Of a DNA stretch of 64,000 nt, positions 1 to 64,000 are shown one piece after another. The translations under genes were made by a program, and so were the position numbers. The DNA is taken from assembly GCF_027947535.2 (NCBI RefSeq), contig NZ_JAAGKO020000004.1, positions 186,001 through 250,000 of the forward strand. The letters run 5' to 3'. Each line of letters begins with the position of its first letter. Position 1 is the stretch's first letter. Source of the DNA: Streptantibioticus silvisoli. GTDB taxonomy: Bacteria; Actinomycetota; Actinomycetes; Streptomycetales; Streptomycetaceae. The notes beneath the pieces were generated by a model. The model saw only the letters and a list, made by a program, of their open reading frames with translations, did no database searches and was not told the DNA's origin.

Positions 1-2
1 CC

Positions 3-1635: not shown

Positions 1636-1885
1636 GCGCCTGGGCTGACGGCCCGCGACCCGCCGTGGGCGGGGGCCGGGGGCGGGCCCGGTGCCGCGCG
1701 CCCCCGGCCCCCGCCGCGCGCCGACCCCGGTCCCCGACGCCCCCGCCCCGCCGCGCCCCGCCGCACCCCGACTCCGACCCCCGCCGCGAGCCCCCGCCCC
1801 CGCCGCCCCCGATCCGCCGATCCCGACACCCCGACACCCCGACACCCGTCCGCGCGCCGGGTGGACGACCCCGTCGCGGGGCGTC

Positions 1886-3370: not shown

Positions 3371-3424
3371 GGCGTCACGGTGTCATGAGCACCGCCAGTC
3401 GTGCTTCCGTTATTCTGCCGTTCC

Positions 3425-4213
3425 ATGTCGCGGAACGGCCAACCCGGGATCGCCCCCACCAGCACGCACACCCACGCCTCCGGCGAGATCATCGCCCGGC
3501 ACCGCCACGACCACCACCAGCTCATCCACGTCAGCACCGGCGTGCTCGCCGTCCAGACCGACGCGGGGGCCTGGGTCGCCTCGTCCGGCCGCGCCGTGTG
3601 GACCCCCGCCGGCACCTGGCACGAGCACCGGGTCCACGGGCGGACCTCCGTGCACACCGTCGGCTTCCCGGCGGACGACGCCCCGCTGCCGACCGGGTCG
3701 CCGACCGTCGTGGCCGTGGACGGTCTGCTGCGGGAACTGCTCGTCGCCTGCACCGGACCCGGCCTGCCGGACCCCGAGGCCCGGCGGATGCGGGCGGTGC
3801 TGACCGACCGGCTGCGCCGCGCCCACGTCCAGCCCCTGACGCTGCCGATCGCCCGCGACCCCCGGCTGGCCCAGGTCTGCCGGCTCGTCGCCGAGGACCT
3901 GACCCGGCCGCGCACCGCGGCCGCCCTCGCCCGCCGGGCCGGGGTCGGTGAGCGGACGCTCGCCCGGCTGTTCCGGACCGAGTTCGGCACGACCTACCCG
4001 CAGTGGCGCACCACCACGCGTGTCTTCCACGCGATGATCCACCTCGCCGAGGGGGCGACGGTCACCGAGACCGCCCGGCGCTGCGGCTGGGCCACGACCA
4101 GCGCGTTCATCGACACCTTCGCCCGGACGATGGGCCAGACCCCCGGTGCCTACCGCGCCGCGGCGGGTTGCGCGGACCACCGTCCCACCGCCGCCCCGCC
4201 CGGCGCTCCGTGA
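3425..4213 (+). CDS. AraC family transcriptional regulator with N-terminal cupin
   Basis: 262 residues from the ATG at 3425; an upstream in-frame start at 3401 exists but lies closer to the divergent gene. The N-terminal half is a cupin (RHRHDHHQ with a His cluster, then a WTPAGTWHEH motif), which usually senses a small ligand or metal. The C-terminal half has the AraC double helix-turn-helix (RRAGVGERTLARLFRTEFG, then a TETARRCGW/SAFIDTFARTMG segment with the usual GxxPxxYR ending). It is head-to-head with the MFS exporter gene, a common regulator-exporter arrangement. Its DNA site should lie in the 54-bp gap. Confidence 0.88.
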   Translation: MSRNGQPGIAPTSTHTHASGEIIARHRHDHHQLIHVSTGVLAVQTDAGAWVASSGRAVWTPAGTWHEHRVHGRTSVHTVGFPADDAPLPTGSPTVVAVDGLLRELLVACTGPGLPDPEARRMRAVLTDRLRRAHVQPLTLPIARDPRLAQVCRLVAEDLTRPRTAAALARRAGVGERTLARLFRTEFGTTYPQWRTTTRVFHAMIHLAEGATVTETARRCGWATTSAFIDTFARTMGQTPGAYRAAAGCADHRPTAAPPGAP

Positions 4214-4420
4214 GGGCCCGCCCCTTCCGGGGGACCCGACGGGTTCGACAGCACCGCCCGGTGCCCTGGCTCGCGGCGCCAATCGCCCCCCGCGATCCGC
4301 ACGCGGCCGTCGCCGCCGCCCGTCCCGCCCCCGCACCGCCCGTCCCGCCCCCGCACCGCCCGTCCCGGCCCCGCTCCCACCGGTTCACCACCGCCGGCGT
4401 CGGCTCGTTACCCTCGTCGC

Positions 4421-4957
4421 ATGACTGACGCCCGTGAGGCTCTGCTGCGGCAGATCAAGGAAAAGGCCGTGGTCCACGGCAAGGTGACGCTGTCCTCGGG
4501 GCTGGAGGCGGACTACTACGTCGACCTGCGCCGGGTCGCGCTGGACGGCGCGGCGGCGCCGCTGGTGGGGCAGGTCATGCTCGACCTGACCGCCGACCTG
4601 GAGTACGACGCGGTCGGCGGACTGACGCTGGGCGCCGACCCGGTGGCGGCCGCCATGCTGCACGCCGCCGCCGCGCGGGGCCGTTCGCTGGACGCCTTCG
4701 TGGTCCGCAAGACCGGTAAGGCGCACGGCCTCCAGCGCCGCATCGAGGGCCCGGACGTCGCCGGCCGCCGTGTGCTGGCGGTCGAGGACACCTCCACCAC
4801 CGGCGGTTCGGTGCTCACCGCGGTCGAGGCGCTGCGCGAGGCGGGCGCCGAGGTGGTCGGCGTGGCCGTCCTGCTCGAACGCGGCGCGGCCGGTGCGATC
4901 GCCGACGCCGGGCTGTCGTACCACTACGCCTACGGGGTGGGCGACCTCGGCCTGTAA
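4421..4957 (+). CDS. pyrE: Orotate phosphoribosyltransferase
   Basis: 178 residues. It transfers the phosphoribosyl group of PRPP to orotate, giving OMP in pyrimidine synthesis. The PRPP-binding loop is clear: VLAVEDTSTTGGS at about residues 117-129. An early GKVTLSSGLEADYYVDLRR segment is diagnostic of PyrE. ATG start at 4421. It stands alone here, not in a pyr operon, as in other streptomycetes. The upstream 207 bp are GC-rich repeats (CCGTCCCGCCCCCGCACCG) without a clear promoter. Confidence 0.95.
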   Translation: MTDAREALLRQIKEKAVVHGKVTLSSGLEADYYVDLRRVALDGAAAPLVGQVMLDLTADLEYDAVGGLTLGADPVAAAMLHAAAARGRSLDAFVVRKTGKAHGLQRRIEGPDVAGRRVLAVEDTSTTGGSVLTAVEALREAGAEVVGVAVLLERGAAGAIADAGLSYHYAYGVGDLGL

Positions 4958-5164
4958 CGGCTGACGGAGGGCCCGGGCGCCGGGGGTGGGGGTCTGCGGA
5001 GGCCCGGGCGTCCGGGGTGGCGGTCAACGGAGGCCCGCGCAACGGTCACCGCGGGTCCGCGCAACGGTCAACGGAAGCCCGGACAACGGCCCGCCGCCAA
5101 CTCACCCCCGGCAAACGCCTGGCGGAAGCCCCTGGAACCGGGCGGGGCGGGACCCGTTGAGCCG
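4958..5164. repeat. Imperfect GTCAACGGAGGCCCG-type repeats between pyrE and parS
   Basis: Several variants of an approximately 20-24 bp element (CGGAGGCCCGGGCG, GTCAACGGAGGCCCGCGCAA, GGTCAACGGAAGCCCGGACA) follow each other between 4970 and 5100. No ORF with coding character is present. Together with the next 160 bp this makes up the 370-bp gap between pyrE and fbaA. Confidence 0.55.
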
Positions 5165-5192
5165 GGCGGGTGTTTCACGTGAAACACCCGCC
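5165..5192. other. parS-like centromere site (28-bp perfect palindrome)
   Basis: A perfect palindrome whose 16-bp core TGTTTCACGTGAAACA matches the chromosomal parS consensus bound by ParB in Streptomyces and Bacillus. The arms extend symmetrically six more bases on each side. It lies in the pyrE-fbaA intergenic region, 136 bp before fbaA. ParB loading here would support chromosome segregation. No other exact copy was seen in the window. Confidence 0.88.
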
Positions 5193-5327
5193 GCCGCCCA
5201 ACAGTCGTACAAACGCCCCCAAAACGGGGTATGTGCCTCGGTCGCCGCGTCTGGAAGGATGAGGGCGACAACGGCGTCGAGAGAGCCCCTGAAGCACCGC
5301 ACACCCGCAAGTCCAAGGAGCGGACAC

Positions 5328-6350
<1,023 letters not shown>

Positions 6351-6724
6351 CCGCCGCGGCACGGGCGCGGCACACCGCGGACCACGCACCGCACGCGTCA
6401 TCGCACCGCCGGACGGACGCGGAGACGCAACGCCTGACGGGCGCGGAGACGCACCGCCGAACGCGCCGCGGACGCGCCGCCGCCGCACCCGTGCCACCCG
6501 CACCAAGCACCGCACCCCGCACCACCGCAATCGCACCACCGCACCCGCACCACGTACCACCGCACCACGCACCGCAATCGCACCACGCACCACATCGCAA
6601 CCGCACCACCGCACCGCATCCGCACCCGCAGCGTGCTCGCGGCGTGGCCCGCGCACGGCCCCGGAGACCTTGGTCCGCCGGGGCCGTGCCGCGTCCCGTC
6701 GCGGGAACCGGCAGACTGGAAACC
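6351..6724. repeat. CGCACC/CACCACCG low-complexity repeats
   Basis: The 374-bp gap between fbaA and the DUF3151 gene is dominated by GACGCGGAGACGCA copies at 6415-6455 and then by alternating CACCGCA, CACCACG and AATCGCACCAC words up to about 6630. There is a strong purine/pyrimidine strand bias. No gene is supported. The last 90 bp should carry the promoter of the DUF3151 gene. Confidence 0.55.
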
Positions 6725-7138
6725 ATGGCTACACACGAGAACCTGCTCGGGGGACCCGCCCCCACCCACCTTCCCGACGACCCGGAGCCGCGTGACCTGC
6801 TCGCCTCCGGCGCCGCACCCGCGGACGTCGCGGCGAAGTACCCGTCGTCCTCCCTCGCGTGGGCGCAGCTCGCCGACGACGCGTTCGAGACGGGCAACAC
6901 CGTGGCGTCCTACGCGTACGCCCGGACCGGCTACCACCGCGGGCTGGACGCGCTGCGGCGCGCGGGGTGGAAGGGCCACGGCCCGGTGCCGTTCGAGCAC
7001 GAGCCGAACCGCGGCTTCCTGCGGGCGCTGCACGCGCTGGCCCGCGCGGCGCAGGCGATCGGTGAGAGCGAGGAGTACGAGCGCTGCAGCACGTTCCTGC
7101 GCGACTCCTCCCCGACCGCGGCCGACACGCTGGGCTGA
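6725..7138 (+). CDS. DUF3151 domain-containing protein
   Basis: 137 residues, ATG at 6725. The sequence matches the pattern of the actinobacterial DUF3151 family: PLPDDPEPRDLLA-like start, KYPSSSLAWAQLAD, a SYAYARTGYHRGLDALRR helix, and an EPNRGFLRALHALARAAQAIGE helix. It is all-helical, with no transmembrane segment and no catalytic motif. Its role is unknown. The gene is conserved beside fba in streptomycetes as far as I recall. A hairpin terminator follows at 7148. Confidence 0.85.
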   Translation: MATHENLLGGPAPTHLPDDPEPRDLLASGAAPADVAAKYPSSSLAWAQLADDAFETGNTVASYAYARTGYHRGLDALRRAGWKGHGPVPFEHEPNRGFLRALHALARAAQAIGESEEYERCSTFLRDSSPTAADTLG

Positions 7139-7147
7139 CGGACCCGG

Positions 7148-7178
7148 GTGACCCCCCGCGCCACGTGCGGGGGGTCAC
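7148..7178 (+). terminator. Hairpin terminator after the DUF3151 gene
   Basis: 12-bp perfect stem (GTGACCCCCCGC / GCGGGGGGTCAC) with a 7-nt loop, 10 bp after the stop codon. No T-tract, as is common for Streptomyces terminators. Confidence 0.75.
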
Positions 7179-7202
7179 TCCGGCAGACCTTGCGGTCCGG
7201 CC

Positions 7203-7231
7203 GGGCCATGCGGAAGATCTCCGCATGGCCC
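7203..7231. promoter_or_regulatory. Inverted repeat in the kynA leader (possible operator or attenuator)
   Basis: 11-bp arms GGGCCATGCGG / CCGCATGGCCC around a 7-nt spacer that itself contains AGATCT. It lies 39 bp before the kynA start and is separate from the preceding terminator. It could be a regulator-binding palindrome for the kyn operon, or an RNA hairpin. Confidence 0.5.
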
Positions 7232-7269
7232 CCGGCGATCCCGTGGGGCCGCAATGAACGGAGAAAGTG

Positions 7270-8118
7270 ATGTCCGTACCGCCCCCCGAGGCCCGAAACG
7301 AAGCCGGACCGGAGACCCCGAACCTCGACTTCGAGGGCACCACGCCCTACGAGGACTACGTCCAGGCCGACGTCCTCACCCATCTCCAGCACCCGCTGTC
7401 GGACGAGCCGGGCGAGATGGTCTTCCTGGTGGCCACCCAGGTGATGGAACTGTGGTTCACCGTGCTGGTCCACGAATGGCAGGTCGCCTGCGAGGCGCTG
7501 CGCCAGGACGAGCTGCCGGTCGTGCTGGAGGCGCTGCGCCGCAGCACGTGGGAGCTGGAGTCGCTCAACGCCTCCTGGAAGCCGCTGGCCCACCTGACAC
7601 CGGTCCAGTTCAACGCCTACCGCGCGGCGCTCGGCGACGGTTCGGGGTTCCAGTCCGCGATGTACCGGCGGCTGGAGTTCCTGCTCGGCGACAAGTCGGC
7701 GTCCATGCTGGTGCCGCACCGCGGCGCCCCCCGGGTGCACGCCGAGCTGGAGAAGGCGCTGTACGAGCCGAGCCTGTACGACGAGGTGCTCGGCTACCTG
7801 GCCCGCCGCGGCCACGCCGTCCCGCCGGAGGTCCTCGGCCGCGACCTGTCCGCCCGCTACGTGCCCGACCCGCGCGTGGAGCAGGTCTGGGCGAACGTCT
7901 ACGCCGGCGGGCAGGACACCCCGGAGGTGCGGCTCGGCGAGGCGCTGACCGAGGTCGCCGAACTCGTCTGGCGCTGGCGCAACGACCACCTGGTCGCCAC
8001 CCGCCGCGCGATGGGCGCCAAGTCGGGCACCGGCGGCTCGGCCGGTGTCGCCTGGTTGGAGAAACGTGCCGCCAAGACCGTCTTCCCCGAACTGTGGACG
8101 GCCCGCAGCCATGTCTGA
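7270..8118 (+). CDS. kynA: Tryptophan 2,3-dioxygenase
   Basis: 282 residues from ATG 7270 (GTG 7267 is the adjacent alternative; GGAG lies 8-10 bp upstream). This haem enzyme opens the indole ring of tryptophan to N-formylkynurenine, the first step of the kynurenine pathway. Family features: early LDFEGTTPYEDYVQ, the QVMELWF helix, a LTPVQFNAYRAALGDGSGFQS core resembling the substrate-binding FR..L...SGFQS motif, and a C-terminal GTGGSAGVAWLEK segment. First gene of a four-gene operon; its last 8 bp overlap the next gene's start. Confidence 0.95.
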   Translation: MSVPPPEARNEAGPETPNLDFEGTTPYEDYVQADVLTHLQHPLSDEPGEMVFLVATQVMELWFTVLVHEWQVACEALRQDELPVVLEALRRSTWELESLNASWKPLAHLTPVQFNAYRAALGDGSGFQSAMYRRLEFLLGDKSASMLVPHRGAPRVHAELEKALYEPSLYDEVLGYLARRGHAVPPEVLGRDLSARYVPDPRVEQVWANVYAGGQDTPEVRLGEALTEVAELVWRWRNDHLVATRRAMGAKSGTGGSAGVAWLEKRAAKTVFPELWTARSHV

Positions 8119-9439
8119 CGCCCCCGAGGACACCGCCGCCCACCCCCCGCACGCCGCCCCGGTCACCGCCGGCGCAGCGGAGCAGACCGCACCGGCCACC
8201 ACCGGCGCCGCGCAGCAGACCACCCCCGGCGCCGCGCAGCGGACCCCCACGTTGGACGACCGCGCCCGCGCGCTGGACGGCGCCGATCCGCTGGCCGCGG
8301 TGCGGGACCGGTTCGCGCTGGACGACACCGTCTACCTGGACGGCAACTCGCTGGGCGCGCTGCCCACCGCGGTCGCGGACCGGCTGCACCGGGTGGTGAC
8401 CGAGGAATGGGGTGCGCTGCGCATCCGGTCCTGGACGGAGTCGGGCTGGTGGACGGCGCCGGAGCGGATCGGCGACCGGATCGCGCCGCTGGTGGGCGCG
8501 GCGGCCGGGCAGATCGTGGTCGGCGACTCCACCAGCGTCAACGTCTTCAAGGCCGTCGTCGGCGCGGTCCGGCTCGCCGGGCAGGACCGCGACGAGATCC
8601 TGGTCGACGCCGCGACCTTCCCGACCGACGGGTACATCGCCGCCTCCGCCGCCCGGCTCACCGGCCGCACGGTCCGGCCGGTGGACGCCGCCGCGATGGC
8701 CGGCGAGATCGGCCCGCGTACCGCCGTCGCGCTGGTCAACCACGTCGACTATCGCACCGGACGGCTGCACGACCTGCCCGGCGTCACCGCCGCGGCGCAC
8801 GCGGCCGGCGCGCTGGTCGTGTGGGACCTGTGCCACAGCGCCGGCGCCCTGCCGGTCGGACTGGACGCGCACGGCGTCGACCTCGCGATCGGATGTACGT
8901 ACAAGTACCTCAACGGTGGGCCGGGCGCGCCCGCGTACCTCTACGTGCGGCGCGACCTCCAGCCGCGGTTCGACTCGCCGCTGCCGGGCTGGAACTCGCA
9001 CGCCGACCCGTTCGGCATGACCCCCGGCTACCGGCCCGCCGACGGCGCGGCGCGCGGCCGGGTCGGCACGCCGGAGATCCTGTCGCTGCTGGCGCTGGAG
9101 ACCGCGCTGGAGGCCTGGGACGGCGTGCGGATCGAGCAGGTGCGGGCCAAGAGCCTGGCGCTGACCGACTTCTTCCTCGACTGCGTCGCCGCCCTGGTGC
9201 CCGCCGGCCGGGTGGAGCCGGTGACGCCGGCCGCGCACGCCGAACGCGGCAGCCAGGTCAGCCTGCGCTGCGCCGGCGCCGGTGAGGTGATGCGGGAGCT
9301 GATCGCCCGCGGGGTGGTGGGCGACTTCCGCCGTCCCGACGTGCTGCGGTTCGGCTTCACGCCGCTGTACACCCGGTATGCCGACGCGCTGCGCGCCGCC
9401 CGCGTCCTGGGCGAGGTGCTGGCCGGGGACGCCCGGTGA
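8111..9439 (+). CDS. kynU: Kynureninase
   Basis: 442 residues from ATG 8111, which overlaps the kynA stop (ATGTCTGA), implying translational coupling. This PLP enzyme cleaves kynurenine to anthranilate and alanine. Landmarks: DDTVYLDGNSLGALP near residue 75, a DSTSVNVFK helix, DLCHSAGALPV, and the PLP lysine in CTYKYLNGGPGAPAYLYV. The first 50 residues are an Ala/Pro/Thr-rich extension, longer than usual, made of degenerate repeats (TAGAAEQTAPATTGAAQQT); it is probably disordered. Confidence 0.95.
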   Translation: MSDAPEDTAAHPPHAAPVTAGAAEQTAPATTGAAQQTTPGAAQRTPTLDDRARALDGADPLAAVRDRFALDDTVYLDGNSLGALPTAVADRLHRVVTEEWGALRIRSWTESGWWTAPERIGDRIAPLVGAAAGQIVVGDSTSVNVFKAVVGAVRLAGQDRDEILVDAATFPTDGYIAASAARLTGRTVRPVDAAAMAGEIGPRTAVALVNHVDYRTGRLHDLPGVTAAAHAAGALVVWDLCHSAGALPVGLDAHGVDLAIGCTYKYLNGGPGAPAYLYVRRDLQPRFDSPLPGWNSHADPFGMTPGYRPADGAARGRVGTPEILSLLALETALEAWDGVRIEQVRAKSLALTDFFLDCVAALVPAGRVEPVTPAAHAERGSQVSLRCAGAGEVMRELIARGVVGDFRRPDVLRFGFTPLYTRYADALRAARVLGEVLAGDAR

Positions 9440-10170
9440 CCGGCGCCGCGGCCCGCGTCGCGGGGGAGTGGCCGGCGCTGGCCGCCCTGCCGGCGCCGCC
9501 GCCCGCGCGCACCTGGCGGTACGGGCCGCACGCGTCGCAGGTGGTGGACTTCCACGGCGACCCGGCCGGCCCGCGGGTGACCGTGCTGCACGGCGGCTAC
9601 TGGCGTCAGCGCCACGACCGCGGCTACCTGGCGGCGACCGCCGGCGCGCTGGCCGCCGAGGGCTACGCGGTCGCGCTCGCCGAGTACCGCCGGGTCGGCG
9701 GCGGCGGTCGCTGGCCCGAGATGTCGGCCGACGTGGCGGCGGTGGTCGCGGGCGCCTGGCCGGACGGCGCAGCCCAGGTGCTGCTGGGCCACTCCGCGGG
9801 CGGCCAGCTCGCGCTGTGGGCCGCGCACCGGCTGCCGGAACGGGTGCGCGGCGTGGTCGCCGTCGGCCCGGTGGCCGACCTCGCGCTGGCCCGCGAGCTG
9901 GGGCTGAGCGACCACGCCGTCGACGAGCTGCTCGGCCCGGACGGCCCGCTGGACGACGCCGACCCCGGGCGGCTGCTGCCCGCCGCCCGGCCCGCGGTGC
10001 TGCTGCACGGCACCGACGACCCGGACGTGCCGGTGGAGCTGTCCCGCCGGTACACGGCCGCCTCCGGCGCGGCGCTGCGCGAGCTGCCCGGCACCGGGCA
10101 CTTCGCGGCGCTCACCCCCGGCAGCGCCGCCTTCCCCCATCTGCTCGACGCCCTGCGGGAGTTCGCGTGA
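9436..10170 (+). CDS. Alpha/beta hydrolase, probable kynurenine formamidase
   Basis: 244 residues, GTG start in a GTGA overlap with kynU. The fold is a small alpha/beta hydrolase: oxyanion motif HGGYWR (residues 54-59), nucleophile elbow GHSAGG, acid in HGTDDPDVP and catalytic His in GTGHF. HGGxW plus its position in the kyn operon fit the arylformamidase that hydrolyses N-formylkynurenine to kynurenine, supplying the step missing between KynA and KynU. Biochemical assignment is inferred from context. Confidence 0.85.
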   Translation: MTGAAARVAGEWPALAALPAPPPARTWRYGPHASQVVDFHGDPAGPRVTVLHGGYWRQRHDRGYLAATAGALAAEGYAVALAEYRRVGGGGRWPEMSADVAAVVAGAWPDGAAQVLLGHSAGGQLALWAAHRLPERVRGVVAVGPVADLALARELGLSDHAVDELLGPDGPLDDADPGRLLPAARPAVLLHGTDDPDVPVELSRRYTAASGAALRELPGTGHFAALTPGSAAFPHLLDALREFA

Positions 10171-11369
10171 CCGCCTTCGACCCCTGGTCGCCCGCCTTCG
10201 TCGCCGACCCCTACCCCGCCTACGCCGCACTGCGCGACCGCGGCCGGGCGGTCCGGTTCGAACCGACCCGGCAGTGGCTGGTGCCGCACCACGACGACGT
10301 CAGCGCGCTGCTGCGCGACCGGCGCCTGGGCCGCACCTACCAGCACCGGTTCAGCCACGAGGAGTTCGGCCGCACCCCGCCCCCGCCCGAGCACGAGCCG
10401 TTCCACGTGCTGAACGGCAACGGGCTGCTCGACCTGGAGGCGCCCGACCACACCCGCATCCGGCGGCTGGTGTCGAAGGCGTTCACCCCGCGGACCGTCG
10501 AGCGGCTGCGGCCGACCGTGGAGTCGCTGGCGTCCCGGCTGGCCGACGACCTGGTGGCGGACGGCGGCGGCGACCTGCTGGCCCAGGTCGCCGAACCCCT
10601 GCCGGTCGCCGTCATCGCCGAGATGCTCGGCATACCCCCGCAGGACCGGGAGCCGCTGCGGCCCTGGTCGGCGGCGATCTGCGGCATGTTCGAGCTGAAC
10701 CCGGACGAGGCCACCGCCGCCGCCGCGGTCCGCGCCAGCGAGGAGTTCTCCGGCTACCTGCGCGGCCTGATCGCCCAGCGCCGCGCCCGTCCCGGCGACG
10801 ACCTGGTCAGCGCGCTGATCGCCGCCCACGACGGCGGTGAGACGCTCACCGAGCAGGAGATGGTCTCCACCTGCGTCCTGCTGCTCAACGCCGGCCACGA
10901 GGCCACCGTCAACACCACGGTCAACGGCTGGTGGACGCTGTTCCGGCACCCCGAGCAGCTCGCCGCGCTGCGCGCCCGCCCCGGCCTGCTGCCCACCGCC
11001 GTCGAGGAACTCCTGCGCTACGACACCCCGTTGCAGATGTTCGAACGCTGGGTGCTGGACGACATCGAGCTGGGCGGCACGGTGATCCCGCGCGGCAGCG
11101 AGGTGGCGCTGCTGTTCGGCTCCGCCAACCACGACCCGGCGCACTTCACCGACCCCGGCCGCCTCGACCTCGCCCGCGAGGACAACCCGCACGTCACCTT
11201 CGGCGCCGGCATCCACTACTGCCTCGGTGCGCCACTGGCCCGCGTCGAACTGCTGGCGTCCTTCGGCGCGTTGCTGCGGGCGGCACCCGGACTGCGGCTG
11301 GTGCGCGAGCCGTCGTGGAAGCCGGGCTACGTCATCCGCGGCCTGACCGAGCTGCTCGTCGAGGTCTGA
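10167..11369 (+). CDS. Cytochrome P450
   Basis: 400 residues, the standard length of a soluble bacterial class I P450. GTG start in a GTGA overlap with the hydrolase gene, so it is the last gene of the kyn operon. Signatures: I-helix AGHEAT (in place of AGxET), ExxR in EELLR, and haem-ligand motif FGAGIHYCLG. The N-terminus FDPWSPAFVADPYPAYAALR is typical. No ferredoxin or reductase gene is adjacent. Tight coupling to kynurenine genes suggests that it oxidises a tryptophan, kynurenine or anthranilate derivative, but the substrate cannot be read from sequence. Confidence 0.93.
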   Translation: MTAFDPWSPAFVADPYPAYAALRDRGRAVRFEPTRQWLVPHHDDVSALLRDRRLGRTYQHRFSHEEFGRTPPPPEHEPFHVLNGNGLLDLEAPDHTRIRRLVSKAFTPRTVERLRPTVESLASRLADDLVADGGGDLLAQVAEPLPVAVIAEMLGIPPQDREPLRPWSAAICGMFELNPDEATAAAAVRASEEFSGYLRGLIAQRRARPGDDLVSALIAAHDGGETLTEQEMVSTCVLLLNAGHEATVNTTVNGWWTLFRHPEQLAALRARPGLLPTAVEELLRYDTPLQMFERWVLDDIELGGTVIPRGSEVALLFGSANHDPAHFTDPGRLDLAREDNPHVTFGAGIHYCLGAPLARVELLASFGALLRAAPGLRLVREPSWKPGYVIRGLTELLVEV

Positions 11370-11381
11370 TCCGGTACCCGG

Positions 11382-11417
11382 GCCCGTCCCACCTCCCCCG
11401 GCGGGGGCGGGGCGGGC
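11382..11417 (+). terminator. Imperfect hairpin after the kyn-P450 operon
   Basis: GCCCG...CGGGC outer stem with a C-run/G-run inner stem (CCCCC/GGGGG), starting 13 bp after the P450 stop. Composition changes to AT-rich just downstream, where the ice-binding-like gene's promoter should be. Confidence 0.5.
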
Positions 11418-11660
11418 TCTGCCGTGTCCGAATATGAAAATAAGCCCGTATGACAATTCACCCGGATGCGCCGCCGCGCGTCCCCGGTGAATCCGTGACG
11501 TCCGCATAGCGTTCTCGTGGAATATGCCGAGCAAGTGTCTCTCCGCCGGAGAGTCGCGACGGGAACGCATTGCCCTTTACCGGAATTCGACCGTGCGTCT
11601 GTCATCGCTTCTCGGCGACCCAGAAACCGTCGGAACGTTCTGAAGGGGTCAGTCGTCACC

Positions 11661-12893
11661 ATGAAAAAGAAATCACCTGGCGTGCCGAGACGGCGCGCTT
11701 TCCACGCCTGGGGCGCGTCGGCCCTCGTCGTGAGCCTCGCGGCGGCGTGGGCGGCCTTCACGCCGGCCGGGGCGAGCGCGATCGGGGTGGCCGTGCCGCT
11801 GGGTACGACCAGCAGTTTCGCGGTCCTGGCCGGCCAGAGCGTCACCAACACCGGCCCCTCCGTGATCACCGGCAACGTCGGCGTCAGCCCGGGCACCTCG
11901 GTCACCGGATTCCCGCCCGGCACGGTGAACGGCGTCATCCACTCCGCGGACGCGGTCGCCCTCCAGGCGCAGACCGACCTGACCGCCGCCTACAACAACG
12001 CCGCGGGCCAGGCGCCGGACGCCAACATCGCCGGTGACCTCGGCGGTCTGACGCTGACGCCCGGCGTCTACCACGGCTCGTCGTCGATCGGCCTGACCGG
12101 CACCCTGACGCTCGACGCCGAGGGCGACCCGAACGCCGTCTTCATCTTCCAGATCGGGTCCACCCTGACCACGGCCTCCGCCAGCCGGGTCGTCCTGATC
12201 AACGGTGCCCAGCCGTGCAACGTCTTCTGGCAGGTGGGCAGTTCGGCCACCCTGGGCACCAACTCCACCTTCGTGGGCAACATCCTGGCCCTCACCTCGA
12301 TCTCGGCCACCACCGGCGCGACCGTCGACGGCCGGACGCTGGCCCGCAACGGGTCGGTCACGCTGGACACCAACACCATCACCCGCTCGGTCTGCGGCAG
12401 CGCCACCACCGGCGGCACGACGGGCGGCAACACCGGTGGGAACACCGGCGGCACGACGGGTGGGAACACCGGTGGTACGACCGGTGGGAACACGGGTGGT
12501 ACGACCGGCGGGAACACCGGTGGTACGACCGGTGGGAACACGGGTGGTACGACCGGCGGGAACACGGGTGGCACGACCGGTGGGAACACCGGCGGGACGA
12601 CCGGCGGCGGAGGGGGCGGCCACCACTGCGGCCGGTACCACCACTGCGGTCACCACCACCACCGTCCGCACCACCACCGTCCGCACCACGGCGGGTTCGA
12701 CCACGGTGGGTCCGACCACGGCCGGCGGCACCACGGCCACCGCCCGTACGGCACCCCGGGCACCGGGTTCGGCGGCTCGCAGGGCGGCTCGGCCGGTGAA
12801 CTCGGCGCCGGCGCCGGCCTGCTGGCCCTGACCGCGCTGGGCACCGGAGCGTACGCCGTGCGCCGCCGCGGCCCGCGTACCGCGCGGATCTGA
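11661..12893 (+). CDS. Secreted ice-binding-like (DUF3494) protein with Gly-Thr-Asn repeats and His-rich tail
   Basis: 410 residues from ATG 11661 (GAAGGGG upstream). Order of parts: basic signal peptide with hydrophobic core and an ASA cleavage site (about residue 34); a DUF3494 beta-helix (about 40-245) with LGTTSSFAVLAGQSVTNTG, GNVGVSPGT and NAVFIFQIGSTL, the signature of the ice-binding/adhesin family; seven to eight TGGNTGGT repeats; a His-rich stretch with HHCG repeats; a C-terminal hydrophobic segment ending in arginines. No LPxTG-type motif was seen, so anchoring would be by the membrane segment. The fold is used as an adhesin as well as an antifreeze. The His tail could bind metal. 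Confidence 0.85.
   Translation: MKKKSPGVPRRRAFHAWGASALVVSLAAAWAAFTPAGASAIGVAVPLGTTSSFAVLAGQSVTNTGPSVITGNVGVSPGTSVTGFPPGTVNGVIHSADAVALQAQTDLTAAYNNAAGQAPDANIAGDLGGLTLTPGVYHGSSSIGLTGTLTLDAEGDPNAVFIFQIGSTLTTASASRVVLINGAQPCNVFWQVGSSATLGTNSTFVGNILALTSISATTGATVDGRTLARNGSVTLDTNTITRSVCGSATTGGTTGGNTGGNTGGTTGGNTGGTTGGNTGGTTGGNTGGTTGGNTGGTTGGNTGGTTGGNTGGTTGGGGGGHHCGRYHHCGHHHHRPHHHRPHHGGFDHGGSDHGRRHHGHRPYGTPGTGFGGSQGGSAGELGAGAGLLALTALGTGAYAVRRRGPRTARI
12412..12606 (+). repeat. 24-bp coding repeats (TGGNTGGT) in the ice-binding-like gene
   Basis: Tandem near-identical units of CGGTGGTACGACCGGTGGGAACA, each encoding eight residues rich in Gly, Thr and Asn. Small base differences between units (GGCGGC/GGTGGT) suggest some age. 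They connect the folded domain to the His-rich tail. Confidence 0.85.
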
Positions 12894-58583: not shown

Positions 58584-58657
58584 CCACCCCTTCTCCGTCC
58601 GGCTCCCAACGCGGCCATTATGAACACGCGGGGTGCGGCTGTCGTCCCCGGCTGAGA

Positions 58658-58822
58658 TCAGCAGTCAGGAGCGCTGGTACCCGGGCTGCCACAGCGCTCC
58701 ACGCGGACGGTGTAAGATCTCTCGGCTGTCCAGTGTCCGTCCTCGTATTCCGCGACCTTCTCTGGGCCGTTCTCCTCGATCCGGACGGTTACTTCGGTCC
58801 ACCTGGACTGAGATCCGGACAT
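58658..58822 (-). CDS. Small hypothetical protein at the island edge
   Basis: 54 residues from ATG 58822, with a strong GGAGGAGAG ribosome-binding site 2-10 bp upstream; a longer frame to 58894 lacks one. Sequence MSGSQSRWTEVTVRIEENG then GPEKVAEYEDGHWTAERSY and a Cys-containing tail. Acidic and soluble, resembling small DUF-type proteins of mobile regions. No family recognised. GC is lower than in the core genes. Confidence 0.6.
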   Translation of the reverse strand: MSGSQSRWTEVTVRIEENGPEKVAEYEDGHWTAERSYTVRVERCGSPGTSAPDC

Positions 58823-58993
58823 TTCTCTCCTCCGTGTGTAGGAATGGTTTTGGGCAGCACTCAGCCAGCCGACTGAACCAAGCGAGCGGGTCATGACCAG
58901 GACTCGATCGGCTGCACCCCTACGGGGTTATGAGGGTGCGTTGCAGCTACGGCTCTCCAAGCCGCGATTTAATATCTTTGGTACAGATACGTA

Positions 58994-59797
58994 TTACTTA
59001 GGGATGGCAGCGGCCAGGATGGCGCTGGCGGTCTCCGGCCGCCCCAGGGTGATGAGTTCTGCCGCGATTCTCATGACGTCGGCAGCGGGTCGCCGGCTGG
59101 CACTGCGCACCAGGCCCGCTTCCACCTCGGCATCGCCCAACTCCCGAAACACATCGGTTGATTCAGCAATCTGGCGGGCCGTCAGGCTGCTTCCCGCCGC
59201 CCAGATGAGCCCCAGCACGTCCTGACGGCGCCCAGCTGCCCTGTGTGCGGCTATGGCGGTCACCATCGACTGGACGGCTGCCGACGCTGTCCACTGCGGC
59301 CGGGCCGGAACGGTTCCCTTGCTGCCGTTCTGTGGCCGGTCCTCGACCGGCACAACGTTTTTTTGCCGGTCGAGGACCGGCCGGACGGCATATTCCCCGG
59401 ACGGTGTGACCTCGAGCTGCTGGGGGAGCTGGGCAACTACGGTTGCCGCTGAGAGATCGCGCCGACTGGTCCGCTTCTGAGACCGGTTGGTGCGCCTGCG
59501 GAGCGTTGCCTGCTTCCAGAGGTCACGAAGTTCCACCAGCTCCGGCAAGGGGCTTCCAGGCGGTACCACTTCTGATGCCGTCTGGTGGATCTTGTCAAGA
59601 GCCCCGAGGCGGGGCATCCGCCGTGCAGCCCGGTAGCAAGACAGCGCACTGGGGCTGATGTTCAGGAGCATCGCCTTCGCACTCTGCTTCGACGGAGGCA
59701 GTGAGTCCACGAGCCGTCGGAGCGCTACCGCGAAGGCCCGCTCCTCCGGAGTGCTGTCCGTGACGAAGTCAGGGCGGGTCTGTCCGGCCACCGGCAT
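58994..59797 (-). CDS. Probable HTH-domain regulator of the island
   Basis: 267 residues from ATG 59797 (AGAAGGGGG upstream). The N-terminal 70 residues form an XRE-like helix-turn-helix (FAVALRRLVDSLPPSKQSAKAMLLN, ISPSALSCYRAARRMP, then LGALDKIHQTA), typical of Streptomyces helix-turn-helix proteins. The middle is basic and low complexity; the C-terminal about 100 residues are all-helical (AIAAHRAAGRRQDVLGLIWAAG, FRELGDAEVEAGLVR). It faces the island's plus-strand genes across a 260-bp gap, consistent with control of them. A 19-bp perfect hairpin lies inside the coding sequence. Confidence 0.72.
   Translation of the reverse strand: MPVAGQTRPDFVTDSTPEERAFAVALRRLVDSLPPSKQSAKAMLLNISPSALSCYRAARRMPRLGALDKIHQTASEVVPPGSPLPELVELRDLWKQATLRRRTNRSQKRTSRRDLSAATVVAQLPQQLEVTPSGEYAVRPVLDRQKNVVPVEDRPQNGSKGTVPARPQWTASAAVQSMVTAIAAHRAAGRRQDVLGLIWAAGSSLTARQIAESTDVFRELGDAEVEAGLVRSASRRPAADVMRIAAELITLGRPETASAILAAAIPK
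59334..59382. repeat. 19-bp perfect inverted repeat inside the HTH regulator gene
   Basis: Arms GGCCGGTCCTCGACCGGCA and TGCCGGTCGAGGACCGGCC with an 11-nt T-rich loop (CAACGTTTTTT). The coding frame stays open through it (encoding parts of RPVLDRQKNVVPVEDRP). It looks like an inserted hairpin or recombination site, not natural protein-coding sequence. Confidence 0.9.
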
Positions 59798-59833
59798 GAG
59801 CAACCCCCTTCTGTGGGATGGTCGTTGCCTCAT

Positions 59834-60056
59834 CCTGGCTTAAGGCACTGACAACCGAGCTGCTCCGGAGCTAAAAAGGCTCAACTGTTTGTTTGCGGCC
59901 GTCAGATCCTGTTTGCATCTGCCTGTTTACACTTTGCCGCACTCTCGGTTCTTTCTGTTTGCGGTAGCCGGCGGAGCCCAATCTGACTTGTGTTGGGCTG
60001 TGTTTTTCGCTTCCAATAGACGCGTCACGACGAGCACTGAACGACGGGATCACAGG
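59834..60056. promoter_or_regulatory. Divergent island promoter region with TGTTTGC repeats
   Basis: TGTTTG[CT] or TGTTTAC occurs at 59886, 59910, 59924 and 59956, twice followed by GG (TGTTTGCGG). Spacings 24, 14 and 32. This AT-rich patch lies between the HTH regulator and the wHTH/HNH-like gene and is a reasonable operator for the regulator, which would then also be autoregulated. Confidence 0.55.
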
Positions 60057-60758
60057 ATGAACGTGAACGGGGAAGAACTGCCCTCGTGGCGGGACGAGAG
60101 TCGCGGCACCATGATCCGGTGTGCGCTCTGGCTCCTCGCTGAGGTCGGCGCGGGGAATGTCTTCACTAAGACGGAGTTGCGGGAGGCGTTCCCGGAAACG
60201 TCGCAGATCGACCGGCGTCTGCGTGACTTGCGGGACCGCGGCTGGCTCATCGGGACGAATCGGGAAGATCCGACCTTGAAGCCGAGTGAACAGCGCTTCG
60301 TCCAGCGCGGCGCCGATGTCTGGAAGCCCGGCCAGGGCCGGGCGGCGGCTGGCCGGACCGCCAGCATCAGCGCTGCTCAGCGTCAGGAAACTTTCGCTGC
60401 TGACGGTTACTTGTGCCGGGTGTGCGGCATTGCCGGCGGTGAGACGTACGAGAACGGGTGGGAGACTGCTCAGTTGGACGTCGCCCGCCGTGAGACCCTG
60501 CTGCCTGGCGGCGGGAAGCGCACCATGCTGATGACCGAGTGCAAGAAGTGCCGCGTCGCACGGCGTGAGTCCGAAGCGGATGTGGCTGGTGTTATCTCGG
60601 AGCTGGACGGACTCAGCTCCTTCGAGCGTGATCACTTCGCGCAGTGGGTGGCCGCCGATGCCCGTGACCTCAGTGTTCTGGAGCGAATCTGGGGACGCTA
60701 CCGCGTCCTGCCCGCCGAGGCGCGGAAGGTCGTTCAGGACGCCGCCAACTCCCGCTGA
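60057..60758 (+). CDS. wHTH plus degenerate HNH-like zinc protein
   Basis: 233 residues from ATG 60057. The N-terminal winged-helix part (RGTMIRCALWLLAEVGAGNVFTKTEL..., AFPETSQIDRRLRDLRDRGWLI, REDPTLKPSEQRFVQRGADVW) is the pattern of actinobacterial type II restriction HNH endonucleases. The C-terminal part keeps the zinc pairs CRVC and CKKC (CxxC...CxxC), but the catalytic HNH core has LDVARRE where LxVGHI/DHI is expected, and CN is CR. It is therefore probably not a nuclease, or uses another site. It could recognise DNA for the ParB-like and helicase partners. Confidence 0.72.
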   Translation: MNVNGEELPSWRDESRGTMIRCALWLLAEVGAGNVFTKTELREAFPETSQIDRRLRDLRDRGWLIGTNREDPTLKPSEQRFVQRGADVWKPGQGRAAAGRTASISAAQRQETFAADGYLCRVCGIAGGETYENGWETAQLDVARRETLLPGGGKRTMLMTECKKCRVARRESEADVAGVISELDGLSSFERDHFAQWVAADARDLSVLERIWGRYRVLPAEARKVVQDAANSR

Positions 60759-60900
60759 CCGGGCTCTGTCGCGTGGCGCTTCCGGGTAAATTGCGGAGCG
60801 GGGCCCGGTCTTCTTGCCGGCGGTGGCTATCCCGCCGCCGGTGTCCCCGCGAGCGGGTGCTGGGTTGGGTTTTTCGGGAGAGATAGGAAGAGAACGTCAT

Positions 60901-62310
60901 ATGTCGGATATTCCTCCGCCGCCGTGCGCTGACCAGAACGCTGCGCTGATCAGGCGCCGCCTTCGCGACGCGGCTGCGGGCGGAGGCACGCCGGAAACGG
61001 TCACTGTCGAGTGGAACCAGAAGCCGGTACACGTCAACGTCATCGACCTTCCGTTGCGTGACCTCTACTACAACCCAGCCACTCACCGAATCCAGGCACA
61101 GCGCGATCACCGGGCCGGGCTTGCTCAGCGTCTGAAGGAGGATCCGTGGGCAGACGACAGTCAGCAGTACCTTCACCACCTTCTGATGGGCAACCCGGCC
61201 AGCCCTGACGAGCCTGATCCCGAATTTGCTGATCTGAAGGCCAGCCTTGGCTCAGTCTCTCAGCAGGAACCGGGTCTGGTTACCTATGCCGGGATACTGG
61301 TCAACGGCAACACCCGTGCTGCCGCTTTGCGGGAACTGAAGCAGACGTCCATCCGCGTCGGGGTACTCCCGGAGTCCTTCACCTGGGAGGACGTCGCTGC
61401 CGTAGAGCTGGCGCTCCAGCTGCGGCCCGATAAACGTCGCGAGTACTCCTACATCAACCGTCTGCTCGCCATGGAAGAGCAGGCTTCCCTAGGCCGTGCC
61501 GCAGAAGCCATCGCCCGTGATTTCCACATGCAGGAGAAAACATTCCACCAGGAGCGGTGGATCCTCGGTGTCATCCGGGACATGATCGAACGGAGCAAGA
61601 CAGTTGACGGAGTGCAACTGCGACTGGTCGACTTCGAGGGTCATCAGGAGAACCTGAAGGAGCTTCACCGCACCTATAGGAACGCCGACAGTAGCGACAA
61701 GGCGGAGCAGATCAAGGAGAATCGCATCGTTGCGATTCTCCTGGACTTCGCCAAGACACGGACTCGTCTGGTCGATGACAAGTTCCAGGAAAAATACCTC
61801 GTCCCAGCTGTGTCGGCGGTGCAGACTATCGCCGCCCCGGTGCCGGCCATCAGCGGCAACATTCCGGGGCTGACCATCGCACCCCCTCCGGAACCCCAGA
61901 CGCTCGCCAGAGCCCGTGCCTTCACTGACCTGGTGCTGAAGGCGAAGGCAGTGGAGAACGCTGCTGGCCTGCCCGAGACCGCGATCGGTGCTGCTCGCGA
62001 CCAGGTGACCGAGCTGCGCAAGGGGCTGCGGCGGGCCCTCGACGCCGCAGAGCGCGACGACCGGCTCCGCAAGAGCCAGCAGACTGCGGCTGAGCACCTG
62101 GACGACGCGTGCGCTGCGATCAACCAGACGATCTCCGACCTTGCCAAGGCCCGCTCAACCCAGAGTCTTGACGAGGACAGCTTTGATGACGCCGTGCTCC
62201 GGCTCCGGGCCAGCCTAGCCAGGCTGGCCCAACAGGCCTCTCGCGGGCTGGCGGAGCCCGGGGACGGCGTGGCTTGGCTTCGCAGCATGGCGGGAGGAAC
62301 GTCCCGGTGA
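60901..62310 (+). CDS. ParB-domain-like protein
   Basis: 469 residues, ATG 60901 with AGGAAGAG upstream. N-terminal half: DLYYNPATHRI then VTYAGILVNGNTRAAALRELK (residues 127-147), whose GNTRAAAL is the ParB/Srx-type nucleotide-binding box (GxGxRR/GNTR); then VGVLPESFTWEDVAAVELALQL and an HTH-like SLGRAAEAIARDFHMQEKTFHQERW. The C-terminal half is helical with KGLRRALDAAERDDRLRKS. Proteins with this box occur in plasmid partition, in phosphorothioate DNA systems and as DNA-binding parts of restriction systems. It overlaps the helicase gene by 4 bp. Confidence 0.85.
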   Translation: MSDIPPPPCADQNAALIRRRLRDAAAGGGTPETVTVEWNQKPVHVNVIDLPLRDLYYNPATHRIQAQRDHRAGLAQRLKEDPWADDSQQYLHHLLMGNPASPDEPDPEFADLKASLGSVSQQEPGLVTYAGILVNGNTRAAALRELKQTSIRVGVLPESFTWEDVAAVELALQLRPDKRREYSYINRLLAMEEQASLGRAAEAIARDFHMQEKTFHQERWILGVIRDMIERSKTVDGVQLRLVDFEGHQENLKELHRTYRNADSSDKAEQIKENRIVAILLDFAKTRTRLVDDKFQEKYLVPAVSAVQTIAAPVPAISGNIPGLTIAPPPEPQTLARARAFTDLVLKAKAVENAAGLPETAIGAARDQVTELRKGLRRALDAAERDDRLRKSQQTAAEHLDDACAAINQTISDLAKARSTQSLDEDSFDDAVLRLRASLARLAQQASRGLAEPGDGVAWLRSMAGGTSR

Positions 62311-64000
62311 GTTCCGGAGAAGAGCCGAGCCTGCGGATCGGTTTCGATGTCACCCACACCAAGGTTATCTTGCATGTGATCCCGGAATTCCGGGAACACC
62401 TCGTACACCTTGCAGCCCGGTACATGACGGGTGAGCAGACCGCTCAGCTTGTCGCCGAGGTTGATCTCGAAGACTTCCTGGCCAACATCAGTCTGCTCTA
62501 CGGATGGACTGGCCCAGGCGTGAAGTTCGAGCCTGCGGTGGCGGCCCTGGCCGAGGGATCGGTCCGGGACGCGCAGGCCATTGACGCCCGCCTTGAGGCA
62601 GGGGCAAGTGGTGAGGATGTCAAGGGTGAAGTGCGCCCCGACGATGTGCTCGACCGCCTGGGGGCCGACTGGAGTGGGCCACTGACCGAATTCCAGCTGC
62701 GTGATATAGCCAAGCTGCTCTCCCTGACCCACGGTGCCAATTTCAGCGTCCCAGGTGCCGGCAAGACCCGCACCACTCTCGCGGTCTACGCGGCGTTGCG
62801 TGAGGCAGGAACCGCGCAGCGCCTGCTAGTAGTGAGCCCCAAGTCGGCCTACGAAGCCTGGCAGGAAGAGAGTCGGCTGTGCTTCACATCTCCGCCCGCA
62901 TTCGAGGTAATGGAGAAGGGGCGCACGGCCGCCGCTGAAGTCCTCCTTGTCAACTACGAGCGGCTCAAGCAGTCGAAGGCCAAGCTGGCCGACTGGCTCA
63001 GCGCTGCTCCCAGCATGCTGGTGCTTGATGAAGCACACCGCATGAAGCTGGGAGTGCGCGGCGCCTATGGCGCGGCTTGCATGACACTTGGCCCGCTGGC
63101 CCGGCATCGGCTGATCCTCACCGGTACACCGGCTCCCAATGGTGCTAAGGACCTGGAGAGCCTACTGTCGTTCGTCTGGCCAGGGCATGGGCGACGCTCT
63201 GTTGACCGGGCGGTGGCCGGCGGAGACCTTGCCTACGCCAGCCGTGTCCTGCGGCCGCTTTTCACCCGCACGACCAAGAACGAACTGGGTCTGCCTCCGG
63301 TTGAGTTCCGCATGCAGCCCGTCCAGTTGCCGCCGGTGCACCGGAAGCTGTACGACGCCTTGATCGGCAAGTATGCGGGGGAATGGGATGAGGAGGCGCA
63401 GCAGTTTGAAAGGCTCGGCAAGGTACTGGTCTACCTGATGATGGCTGCCACCAGCCCCGCGCTGCTGTCCGAGGGGCTTAGCCGCCACGAGCCACTGCCT
63501 TTCCACATACCACCGTTGAGCGTTCCGGATGACGACTCGCTTAGCGCATTGATGCGGCAACTGCCTGAGTACGAGATCTCACCGAAATATGACTACGTGA
63601 TCCGGAAGGTGGCCGCCAACGCGAAGCTCGGACGCAAGACCTTGGTCTGGTCGACCTTTGTCCGCAACCTGACGTCTTTAGGCGACATCCTTGAGCGCTT
63701 CAGTCCAGCCGTGGTCCACGGAGGTACTGCGGACCGGGAAGAGCAGATCCAGCGCTTCCGCAACGACCCGGACTGCATGGTGCTGCTCTCCAACCCCGCC
63801 ACCCTCGGCGAAGGCATCAGTCTTCACCACGACTGCCACGACGCCATCTATGTCGACCGCAACTTCGCCGCCGGCGGATTCCTGCAGAGCATGGACCGTA
63901 TCCACCGCCTCGGGCTCGCACCGGATACTAAGACCCAGATTACCGTGCTGGTCGCAGACGGCACGGTCGATGAGATCGTTCACGAACGGCTGGCGCTCAA
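62307..64000 (+). CDS. SNF2/DEAD-like helicase of the island (3' end beyond the window)
   Basis: 564 complete codons, open to the window edge; GTG 62307 in a GTGA overlap with the ParB-like gene. A 140-residue N-terminal domain without recognised fold precedes a superfamily 2 core: Walker A VPGAGKT (about 148-154), LLVVSPKSAYEAWQEE, DEAH in MLVLDEAHRMK (241-244), ILTGTPAPNG, and in the second RecA domain VWSTFVRNL, LLSNPATLGEGISLHH and the SNF2-type FLQSMDRIHRLGL. This is a SNF2/Rad54-like translocase. Such enzymes act in DNA repair and many defence systems. Full length and domain C-terminus unknown. Confidence 0.9.
   Translation, partial: MSSGEEPSLRIGFDVTHTKVILHVIPEFREHLVHLAARYMTGEQTAQLVAEVDLEDFLANISLLYGWTGPGVKFEPAVAALAEGSVRDAQAIDARLEAGASGEDVKGEVRPDDVLDRLGADWSGPLTEFQLRDIAKLLSLTHGANFSVPGAGKTRTTLAVYAALREAGTAQRLLVVSPKSAYEAWQEESRLCFTSPPAFEVMEKGRTAAAEVLLVNYERLKQSKAKLADWLSAAPSMLVLDEAHRMKLGVRGAYGAACMTLGPLARHRLILTGTPAPNGAKDLESLLSFVWPGHGRRSVDRAVAGGDLAYASRVLRPLFTRTTKNELGLPPVEFRMQPVQLPPVHRKLYDALIGKYAGEWDEEAQQFERLGKVLVYLMMAATSPALLSEGLSRHEPLPFHIPPLSVPDDDSLSALMRQLPEYEISPKYDYVIRKVAANAKLGRKTLVWSTFVRNLTSLGDILERFSPAVVHGGTADREEQIQRFRNDPDCMVLLSNPATLGEGISLHHDCHDAIYVDRNFAAGGFLQSMDRIHRLGLAPDTKTQITVLVADGTVDEIVHERLAL

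What the first reader, a model, noticed from the sequence alone, without database searches (positions are those of the whole stretch)
58600..64000. Candidate undescribed defence or DNA-modification island: wHTH/HNH-like protein, ParB-like protein and SNF2 helicase
A sharp compositional change after 58583 starts an accessory region. The plus-strand genes form a unit: a DNA-binding wHTH/zinc protein, a ParB-box protein and an SNF2-type helicase, the latter two fused by a GTGA overlap. A divergent HTH gene with likely operators controls it. ParB-box proteins plus SNF2-like helicases are found in phosphorothioate and 7-deazaguanine systems and in restriction islands, but this combination with a degenerate HNH sensor-like protein does not match a system I can name. 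The helicase is cut by the window end, so further components (methyltransferase, nuclease, modification enzyme) probably follow.
Basis: partly seen in the sequence, partly recalled or inferred. Interest (0 to 1): 0.88.

Follow-up and report, generated by a model that had tools for sequence, protein, structure and literature searches.

The report
Restriction island with disarmed-enzyme ParB–SNF2 module
This is a bacterial DNA-defence island in which an ordinary restriction-modification gene set is tied to a conserved three-gene machine: a restriction-enzyme relative that has lost its cutting residues, a ParB-like DNA clamp and a DNA motor. The combination recurs in many bacteria and I found no published description of it.

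Summary
From 58.6 kb the island is 62-64% GC against 74-76% in its flanks. It runs about 2.8 kb past the window end. Gene order: HTH regulator; wHTH/degenerate-HNH protein; ParB-like protein; SNF2 ATPase; m5C methyltransferase; Vsr; NaeI-family endonuclease.

The first three plus-strand genes are a conserved unit. Among 115 non-redundant actinomycete loci found by ParB similarity, the degenerate-HNH gene is present in 114, SNF2 in 115, methyltransferase in 113 and Vsr in 114. NaeI is optional (33/115), and 58/115 have no further recognised nuclease.

Gene 1 is a homologue of an intact wHTH-HNH protein encoded beside m5C methyltransferases, but its catalytic His is replaced by Arg (111/114, never His). 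More distant ParB-SNF2 operons (alphaproteobacterial plasmids, one Streptomyces) carry an unrelated gene 1 that is a dead relative of a PD-(D/E)XK Type II enzyme. So 'dead restriction enzyme + ParB + SNF2 + m5C methyltransferase + Vsr' appears to have arisen twice.

Best reading: a methylation-gated defence in which the dead enzyme finds unmethylated sites and hands them to a ParB/SNF2 machine, the nuclease being swappable. Anatomy and co-occurrence are shown; the mechanism is inferred.

The parts
58994..59833 (-). divergent HTH regulator (279 aa), start of island
   Evidence: ORF; no Pfam family. Relatives in the same divergent position in many loci (clusters c5/c8).
59885..59964 (+). operator-like direct repeats, 4 copies of TGTTTRC between the divergent genes
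   Evidence: 4 of the 5 copies in 64 kb lie in this 73-bp stretch
60057..60758 (+). gene 1: wHTH + degenerate HNH (Cys4 treble-clef-like) protein, 233 aa; catalytic His replaced by Arg145
   Evidence: 37% identical, E 2e-37, to intact wHTH-HNH paralogue L060:4786-5505
60901..62310 (+). gene 2: ParB-superfamily protein (ParB-N domain, HTH, C-terminal coiled coil), 469 aa
62307..64000 (+). gene 3: SNF2-family ATPase (612 aa), continues to 64145 (L002:4308-6146). The island goes on beyond the window (window position = L002 position + 57999): m5C methyltransferase L002:6330-7481 (+), Vsr L002:7416-7871 (-), NaeI-family endonuclease L002:7906-8841 (-), island end about 66840.
   Evidence: SNF2: PF00176/PF00271, Walker A and DEAH intact in 105/105, GTGA overlap with gene 2. 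Beyond the window: PF00145 E 3e-55 and TIGR00675; TIGR00632 131.6 bits against cut-off 97.85; PF09126 E 9e-88 and NaeI 1ev7 E 1.8e-62

Best explanation
A methylation-gated restriction-type defence system. The m5C methyltransferase marks host sites and Vsr repairs T:G mismatches from deaminated m5C. Gene 1, a restriction-enzyme homologue that keeps its DNA-binding wHTH and zinc fold but has lost its catalytic residues, binds the unmethylated target as a sensor. It passes the signal to the ParB-like protein, which by analogy with CTP-gated ParB clamps closes on the DNA, and to the co-expressed SNF2 ATPase, which translocates on or remodels the marked DNA. Damage is done by a swappable nuclease (here NaeI; elsewhere a DUF3883/NOV_C nuclease, an intact wHTH-HNH or a GmrSD protein). 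Where there is no extra nuclease, the clamp and motor may simply block replication or expression of the invader. SHOWN: gene content, co-inheritance, intact ATPase and methyltransferase motifs, ParB fold, loss of catalytic residues in two unrelated gene-1 families, nuclease turnover. INFERRED: site binding by gene 1, CTP/ATP-dependent loading, translocation, anti-phage effect.
For: Co-inheritance: in 115 non-redundant loci, gene 1 114, SNF2 115, methyltransferase 113, Vsr 114 (loci). Nuclease swaps: NaeI 33/115 with at least 14 changes on the ParB tree, DUF3883 basal with 8 changes. Minimal islands of regulator + gene 1 + ParB + SNF2 + methyltransferase + Vsr: the next core gene lies 62-97 bp from the R-M genes (L040, L045, L049, L050). 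Gene 1 is a dead REase homologue: His->Arg 111/114 against His in 10/11 of the intact clade, which lies about 1 kb from an m5C methyltransferase. Independent parallel: in X-ParB-SNF2-DUF3883 operons (Rhizobium, Azospirillum, Mesorhizobium, Kozakia, Streptomyces L090), X matches the PADLOC Type II REase family PDLC03501 (2.8e-19; the active homologue 2e-137), but HDY...I(E/D)LKG, present in 8/8 active homologues, reads TVY...IIQKG (or TIY) in 5/5 X. ParB fold. ParB-SNF2 pairs also lie beside Type III Mod-Res in Enterococcus and beside dcm/Sau3AI in Priestia.
Against: About half the loci have no recognised nuclease besides Vsr, so cleavage cannot be the general outcome. Gene-1 divergence does not track methyltransferase divergence better than ParB does (partial r 0.158 against 0.161), so a shared target site is not demonstrated. 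One locus (L034) has the trio with no adjacent methyltransferase; its genome carries an NaeI/methyltransferase/Vsr cluster elsewhere. The ParB box III Asn is Leu in this family, so CTP use is uncertain. Some ParB-SNF2 pairs lack any gene 1 (L179, L193, L209).
Confidence: 0.55

Rival explanations
1. An ordinary NaeI-type Type II R-M system with Vsr, next to an unrelated accessory set: the trio is a passenger or only regulates R-M expression.
For: NaeI, methyltransferase and Vsr are all intact and known. NaeI occurs in 75/395 Streptomycetaceae against 59/395 for the ParB gene, so NaeI usually lives without the trio. A divergent HTH gene already serves as regulator.
Against: The trio keeps methyltransferase and Vsr in 113-114/115 loci even without NaeI. 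The same ParB-SNF2 pair recurs with other R-M types in Proteobacteria and Bacillota. A 612-aa SNF2 motor is an unlikely R-M expression controller.
Confidence: 0.15
2. The trio helps modification rather than restriction: the dead REase finds unmethylated sites and ParB/SNF2 clear DNA-bound proteins so that the methyltransferase can maintain methylation, an analogue of DDM1/HELLS remodellers that promote 5mC in eukaryotes.
For: The constant partners are the methyltransferase and Vsr, while the nuclease is optional. SNF2 remodellers are known to promote 5mC in eukaryotes (abstracts of PMC10529913 and PMC10538959, listed).
Against: Basal and outgroup operons put a nuclease (DUF3883) directly after SNF2. 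The operons lie in variable hotspots and on plasmids, as defence genes do.
Confidence: 0.12
3. A restriction-moderation or addiction device: the dead REase competes with live REases (its own or foreign) for unmethylated sites and protects the host genome during methyltransferase shortage.
For: Dead and intact copies coexist in the same locus in several genomes (L058, L060, L145, L146, L153, L154, L157, L164, L169; Rhizobium L180).
Against: Does not explain 58/115 loci with no REase, nor the need for a ParB clamp and an ATP-driven motor.
Confidence: 0.08
4. A modification-dependent (Type IV-like) system in which gene 1 recognises modified phage DNA instead of unmethylated sites.
For: GmrSD (c38) and ParB-like DUF262 domains couple NTP hydrolysis to recognition of modified DNA elsewhere (SspE, PMC13251355). 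Four loci pair the trio with GmrSD.
Against: The close intact relatives of gene 1 are paired with m5C methyltransferases, as REases that cut unmethylated sites are.
Confidence: 0.08

Closest known systems
NaeI Type II (IIE) R-M system
   Same: NaeI-family endonuclease (1ev7, E 1.8e-62) with adjacent m5C methyltransferase and Vsr
   Different: adds gene 1-ParB-SNF2, which NaeI systems mostly lack and which exists without NaeI in 82/115 loci
MORC/paraMORC-associated R-M operons with SWI2/SNF2 helicase, cytosine methylase, Vsr and HNH (PMC2292703)
   Same: SNF2 ATPase plus m5C methylase plus Vsr in one R-M neighbourhood
   Different: none of the seven island proteins is a GHKL/MORC ATPase; a ParB-superfamily protein and a dead REase homologue take the fixed places instead
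DISARM (DrmD SNF2-like helicase, DrmMII m5C methylase)
   Same: SNF2-like helicase and m5C methylase in one island
   Different: no DrmA, DrmB or DrmC; the helicase matches only at ATPase-domain level and far below the curated cut-off (41 against 610 bits)
SWI2/SNF2 fused to DUF3883 in R-M operons (PMC3710099)
   Same: SNF2 linked to a DUF3883 nuclease in R-M context
   Different: here DUF3883 is a separate downstream gene, absent in the window's lineage, and ParB plus gene 1 are constant
DndB / SspE / GmrSD ParB-superfamily components of defence systems (PMC10853773, PMC13251355)
   Same: ParB/Srx-fold protein working in defence next to DNA modification
   Different: ParB boxes I-III with HTH and coiled coil, not DndB or DUF262; no phosphorothioation genes
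Druantia type II (DruM methyltransferase)
   Same: the methyltransferase is close to PADLOC DruM models (E 8e-123)
   Different: no DruE/F/G; the similarity is that of one m5C methylase to another

Membership tests
NaeI-type Type II R-M | NaeI-family endonuclease with catalytic motif | tested here: met
   PF09126 294.7 bits against cut-off 25; alignment to 1ev7 keeps the acidic residues and Lys
NaeI-type Type II R-M | cognate m5C methyltransferase adjacent | tested here: met
   PF00145, TIGR00675
NaeI-type Type II R-M | cleaves GCCGGC, needs two sites (IIE) | not testable with these tools
   -
Vsr endonuclease | TIGR00632 above cut-off | tested here: met
   131.6 against 97.85 bits
ParB superfamily | ParB-N fold with boxes I-III | tested here: met
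ParB superfamily | NTP (CTP) binding and clamp closure | not testable with these tools
HNH nuclease | catalytic His of the beta-beta-alpha metal site | tested here: not met
   Arg 111/114, Lys 2, Ser 1, never His
DISARM | DrmA helicase, DrmB (DUF1998), DrmC | tested here: not met
   none among the seven island proteins
Dnd/Ssp and Dpd | DndCDE/SspBCD or DpdA (TGT) | tested here: not met
   no such hit among the seven island proteins; only the SNF2 domain resembles DpdE
Druantia type II | DruE, DruF, DruG with DruM | tested here: not met
   only DruM-like methylase similarity
MORC R-M | GHKL/MORC ATPase in operon | tested here: not met
   no GHKL hit among the seven island proteins
BREX | PglZ and BrxC | tested here: not met
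   none among the seven island proteins

The most novel reading that the evidence does not exclude
A distinct class of innate immunity: restriction enzymes that have been catalytically disarmed at least twice independently (HNH and PD-(D/E)XK) serve as methylation-sensitive site sensors that load a ParB-type clamp and an SNF2 motor onto unmethylated invader DNA, with nuclease action optional.
Probability: 0.35. Interest if true: 0.9.

Novelty: new variant of a known kind. Interest (0 to 1): 0.72.

Why it matters
If true, Type II restriction enzymes have repeatedly been turned into dead recognition subunits of an ATP/NTP-driven machine, a natural parallel to dCas9. That would link ParB clamp biochemistry (chromosome segregation) to restriction. 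It gives a function to proteins annotated only as 'hypothetical' or 'ParB/RepB/Spo0J family partition protein' beside methyltransferases in actinomycetes, Proteobacteria and Bacillota. It also matters for transforming Streptomyces, since about 15% of the sampled Streptomycetaceae species carry the module (59/395).

Tried and rejected
Phosphorothioate, 7-deazaguanine, DISARM, BREX, Zorya and Hma membership: only helicase-domain-level similarity. Solved relatives by sequence of gene 1 and ParB: none convincing. Foldseek for gene 1: nothing significant; the best-probability hits include the HNH domains of Cap5 (0.75) and McrA (0.60), weak support only. Mantel test that gene 1 co-varies with the methyltransferase more than ParB does: not shown. 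ParB relatives in phages: none in 50,697 records. Homology between actinomycete gene 1 and the proteobacterial gene-1 family X: none found, hence 'two origins'. One phylum-sample hit (L175/L177) is an unrelated ParB-methyltransferase fusion in a phage-like region.
Full report
WHAT IS THERE. The window is G000:C65:186001-250000 of an 8.7-Mb Streptomycetaceae draft genome. The next 14 kb were read as locus L002 (window position = L002 position + 57999). The island starts after 58583 and ends near 66840. GC falls from 74.1% (left flank) to 62.4% and rises to 76.5% on the right. Its genes are a divergent HTH regulator; gene 1 (233 aa); gene 2, ParB-like (469 aa); gene 3, SNF2 (612 aa); an m5C methyltransferase (383 aa); Vsr (151 aa, opposite strand, 3' overlap with the methyltransferase); and an NaeI-family endonuclease (311 aa). 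Family searches identify SNF2, DNA_methylase, Vsr and NaeI, but not gene 1 or the ParB-like gene. Four of the five TGTTTRC words of the whole window lie in one 73-bp stretch between the divergent genes.

HOTSPOT. In another genus (G005, L202) the same flanking genes (M23 peptidase and 123-aa protein on the left, PrsW-TrmB-LhgO on the right) enclose a different 5.7-kb, 64%-GC insert with a 1047-aa protein whose sequence I read as a PLD-like domain plus SF2 helicase. So the island is a cargo of a variable site. In other genomes the same set sits at other places.

CONSERVATION. A search with the ParB-like protein found it in 59 of 395 Streptomycetaceae genomes and 226 stretches in the GTDB genome collection, of which the best 80 were kept: Streptomyces, Kitasatospora, Streptacidiphilus, Actinacidiphila, Amycolatopsis, Saccharopolyspora, Saccharothrix, Lentzea, Herbidospora, Sinosporangium, Streptosporangium. 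It is rare over the phylum as a whole (5 of 396, two of them very distant). After removing near-copies, 115 loci remain: gene 1 in 114, SNF2 in 115, methyltransferase in 113, Vsr in 114, NaeI in 33, DUF3883/NOV_C nuclease in 20, intact wHTH-HNH in 12, GmrSD in 4, another HNH in 4, none of these in 58. ParB was the query, so the co-occurrence of the other genes is not circular. In several loci without extra nuclease the R-M genes are followed by a core gene after only 62-97 bp, so no nuclease is hidden on that side. NaeI itself is found in 75 of 395 genomes, mostly without the trio. On the ParB tree NaeI changes state at least 14 times, while DUF3883 is present in the outgroups and basal actinomycete branches. 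The constant core is therefore trio + methyltransferase + Vsr, with a replaceable nuclease.

GENE 1 IS A DISARMED RESTRICTION ENZYME. Some loci encode, about 1 kb from a second m5C methyltransferase, a protein 37% identical to gene 1 over its length (E 2e-37; positions) with an intact HNH signature (GHVNPH...CARCN). At the catalytic His column gene 1 has Arg in 111/114, Lys in 2, Ser in 1 and never His; the intact clade has His in 10/11. The zinc Cys pairs and the wHTH are kept. Gene-1 and intact copies fall on two sides of one branch. AlphaFold gives a confident model (pLDDT 89), but Foldseek finds nothing significant; HNH domains of Cap5 and McrA are among the best by probability.

AN INDEPENDENT PARALLEL. 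ParB relatives on alphaproteobacterial plasmids (Rhizobium, Azospirillum, Mesorhizobium, Kozakia) and in one Streptomycetaceae genome (L090) sit in an operon X-ParB-SNF2-DUF3883, with an m5C methyltransferase and mostly Vsr on the same locus or plasmid. X is not related to actinomycete gene 1. It is related to the ORF that overlaps m5C methyltransferases on many plasmids (annotated examples), which PADLOC models as a Type II REase (PDLC03501, 2e-137; X itself 2.8e-19). All 8 aligned active homologues have HDY...I(E/D)LKG; all 5 X have TVY or TIY...IIQKG, losing the acidic residues. So a dead REase homologue was placed before ParB-SNF2 twice, from two nuclease folds. In Rhizobium pRL11 the active and dead forms lie within 6 kb of each other. 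ParB-SNF2 pairs without a gene 1 also accompany R-M genes in Bacillota: Type III Mod-Res in Enterococcus faecium, dcm and Sau3AI-type endonuclease in Priestia, dcm and Vsr in Lactiplantibacillus.

THE PARB-LIKE PROTEIN. The model (pLDDT 88.7) matches ParB, Noc and KorB structures (prob 1.0, E 1.8e-4). By my reading of the model it holds the ParB-N domain, a following HTH region and a long C-terminal helix. Boxes I and II are kept (NPxTHR, NGNTR). Box III reads VELxLQLR, with Leu where canonical ParB has Asn (from general knowledge of ParB motifs), so CTP use is uncertain. SNF2 Walker A and DEAH and methyltransferase PC and ENV motifs are intact in 105/105.

HOW IT PROBABLY WORKS. Inferred: gene 1 binds the unmethylated cognate site; ParB closes on DNA there; SNF2 moves along or remodels the DNA; a nuclease (NaeI here) or simple blockade stops the invader; methylation protects the host and Vsr limits mutation at m5C. 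A direct test of a shared target by co-divergence of gene 1 and methyltransferase was not decisive.

KNOWN OR NEW. Literature searches found related themes, but no description of this set: R-M operons with SNF2 and Vsr plus MORC ATPases (PMC2292703), SNF2-DUF3883 fusions (PMC3710099), ParB-superfamily proteins in Dnd, Ssp and BREX contexts (PMC10853773, PMC13251355, PMC12839542). Only open-licence papers were searchable and REBASE was not available, so prior notice elsewhere is possible. I rate it a new variant of restriction-type defence, with a minority probability that it is a class of its own.

LIMITS. Gene calls in the relatives are heuristic. 'No extra nuclease' means none related to the five nuclease families used as queries within about 11 kb. 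The actinomycete sample is the best-matching part of a larger set. No function was tested.

Noticed in passing
L209 (Enterococcus faecium p1818-a), 1-7725: Type III Mod and Res genes stand directly before, and Res overlaps, a ParB-SNF2 pair, suggesting that the pair is an add-on to several R-M types.
   Followed up: partly
L208 (Priestia megaterium p1), 1982-12462: dcm - ParB-like - SNF2 (851 aa) - MutH/Sau3AI endonuclease - hypothetical - dcm; ParB identity confirmed by profile (5e-19).
   Followed up: partly
L058, L060, L145, L153 and others, about 5 kb after ParB: A divergent pair m5C methyltransferase / intact wHTH-HNH protein with no PADLOC or strong Pfam match: a candidate unnamed Type II R-M pair.
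   Followed up: partly
L090:3397-4410 (-) and L181:16307-17179: DUF4928 (PF16280) protein next to an m5C methyltransferase in two ParB-SNF2 islands: a candidate uncharacterised restriction enzyme.
   Followed up: no
L202 (G005) 8192-11335: The same chromosomal hotspot carries a 1047-aa protein that looks like a PLD-domain SF2 helicase in another genus.
   Followed up: partly
L189 (Kozakia pKB14400_4) 2093-2951: The active-type REase ORF beside the methyltransferase is broken into two frames with stops, while the dead homologue X on the same plasmid is intact.
   Followed up: no
L085-L089, upstream of ParB: In an early-branching group gene 1 is divergent from ParB and stands in one orientation with the methyltransferase, like an R-M pair.
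   Followed up: partly
window 58658-58894 (-): 78-aa ORF at the island edge, no family match.
   Followed up: no
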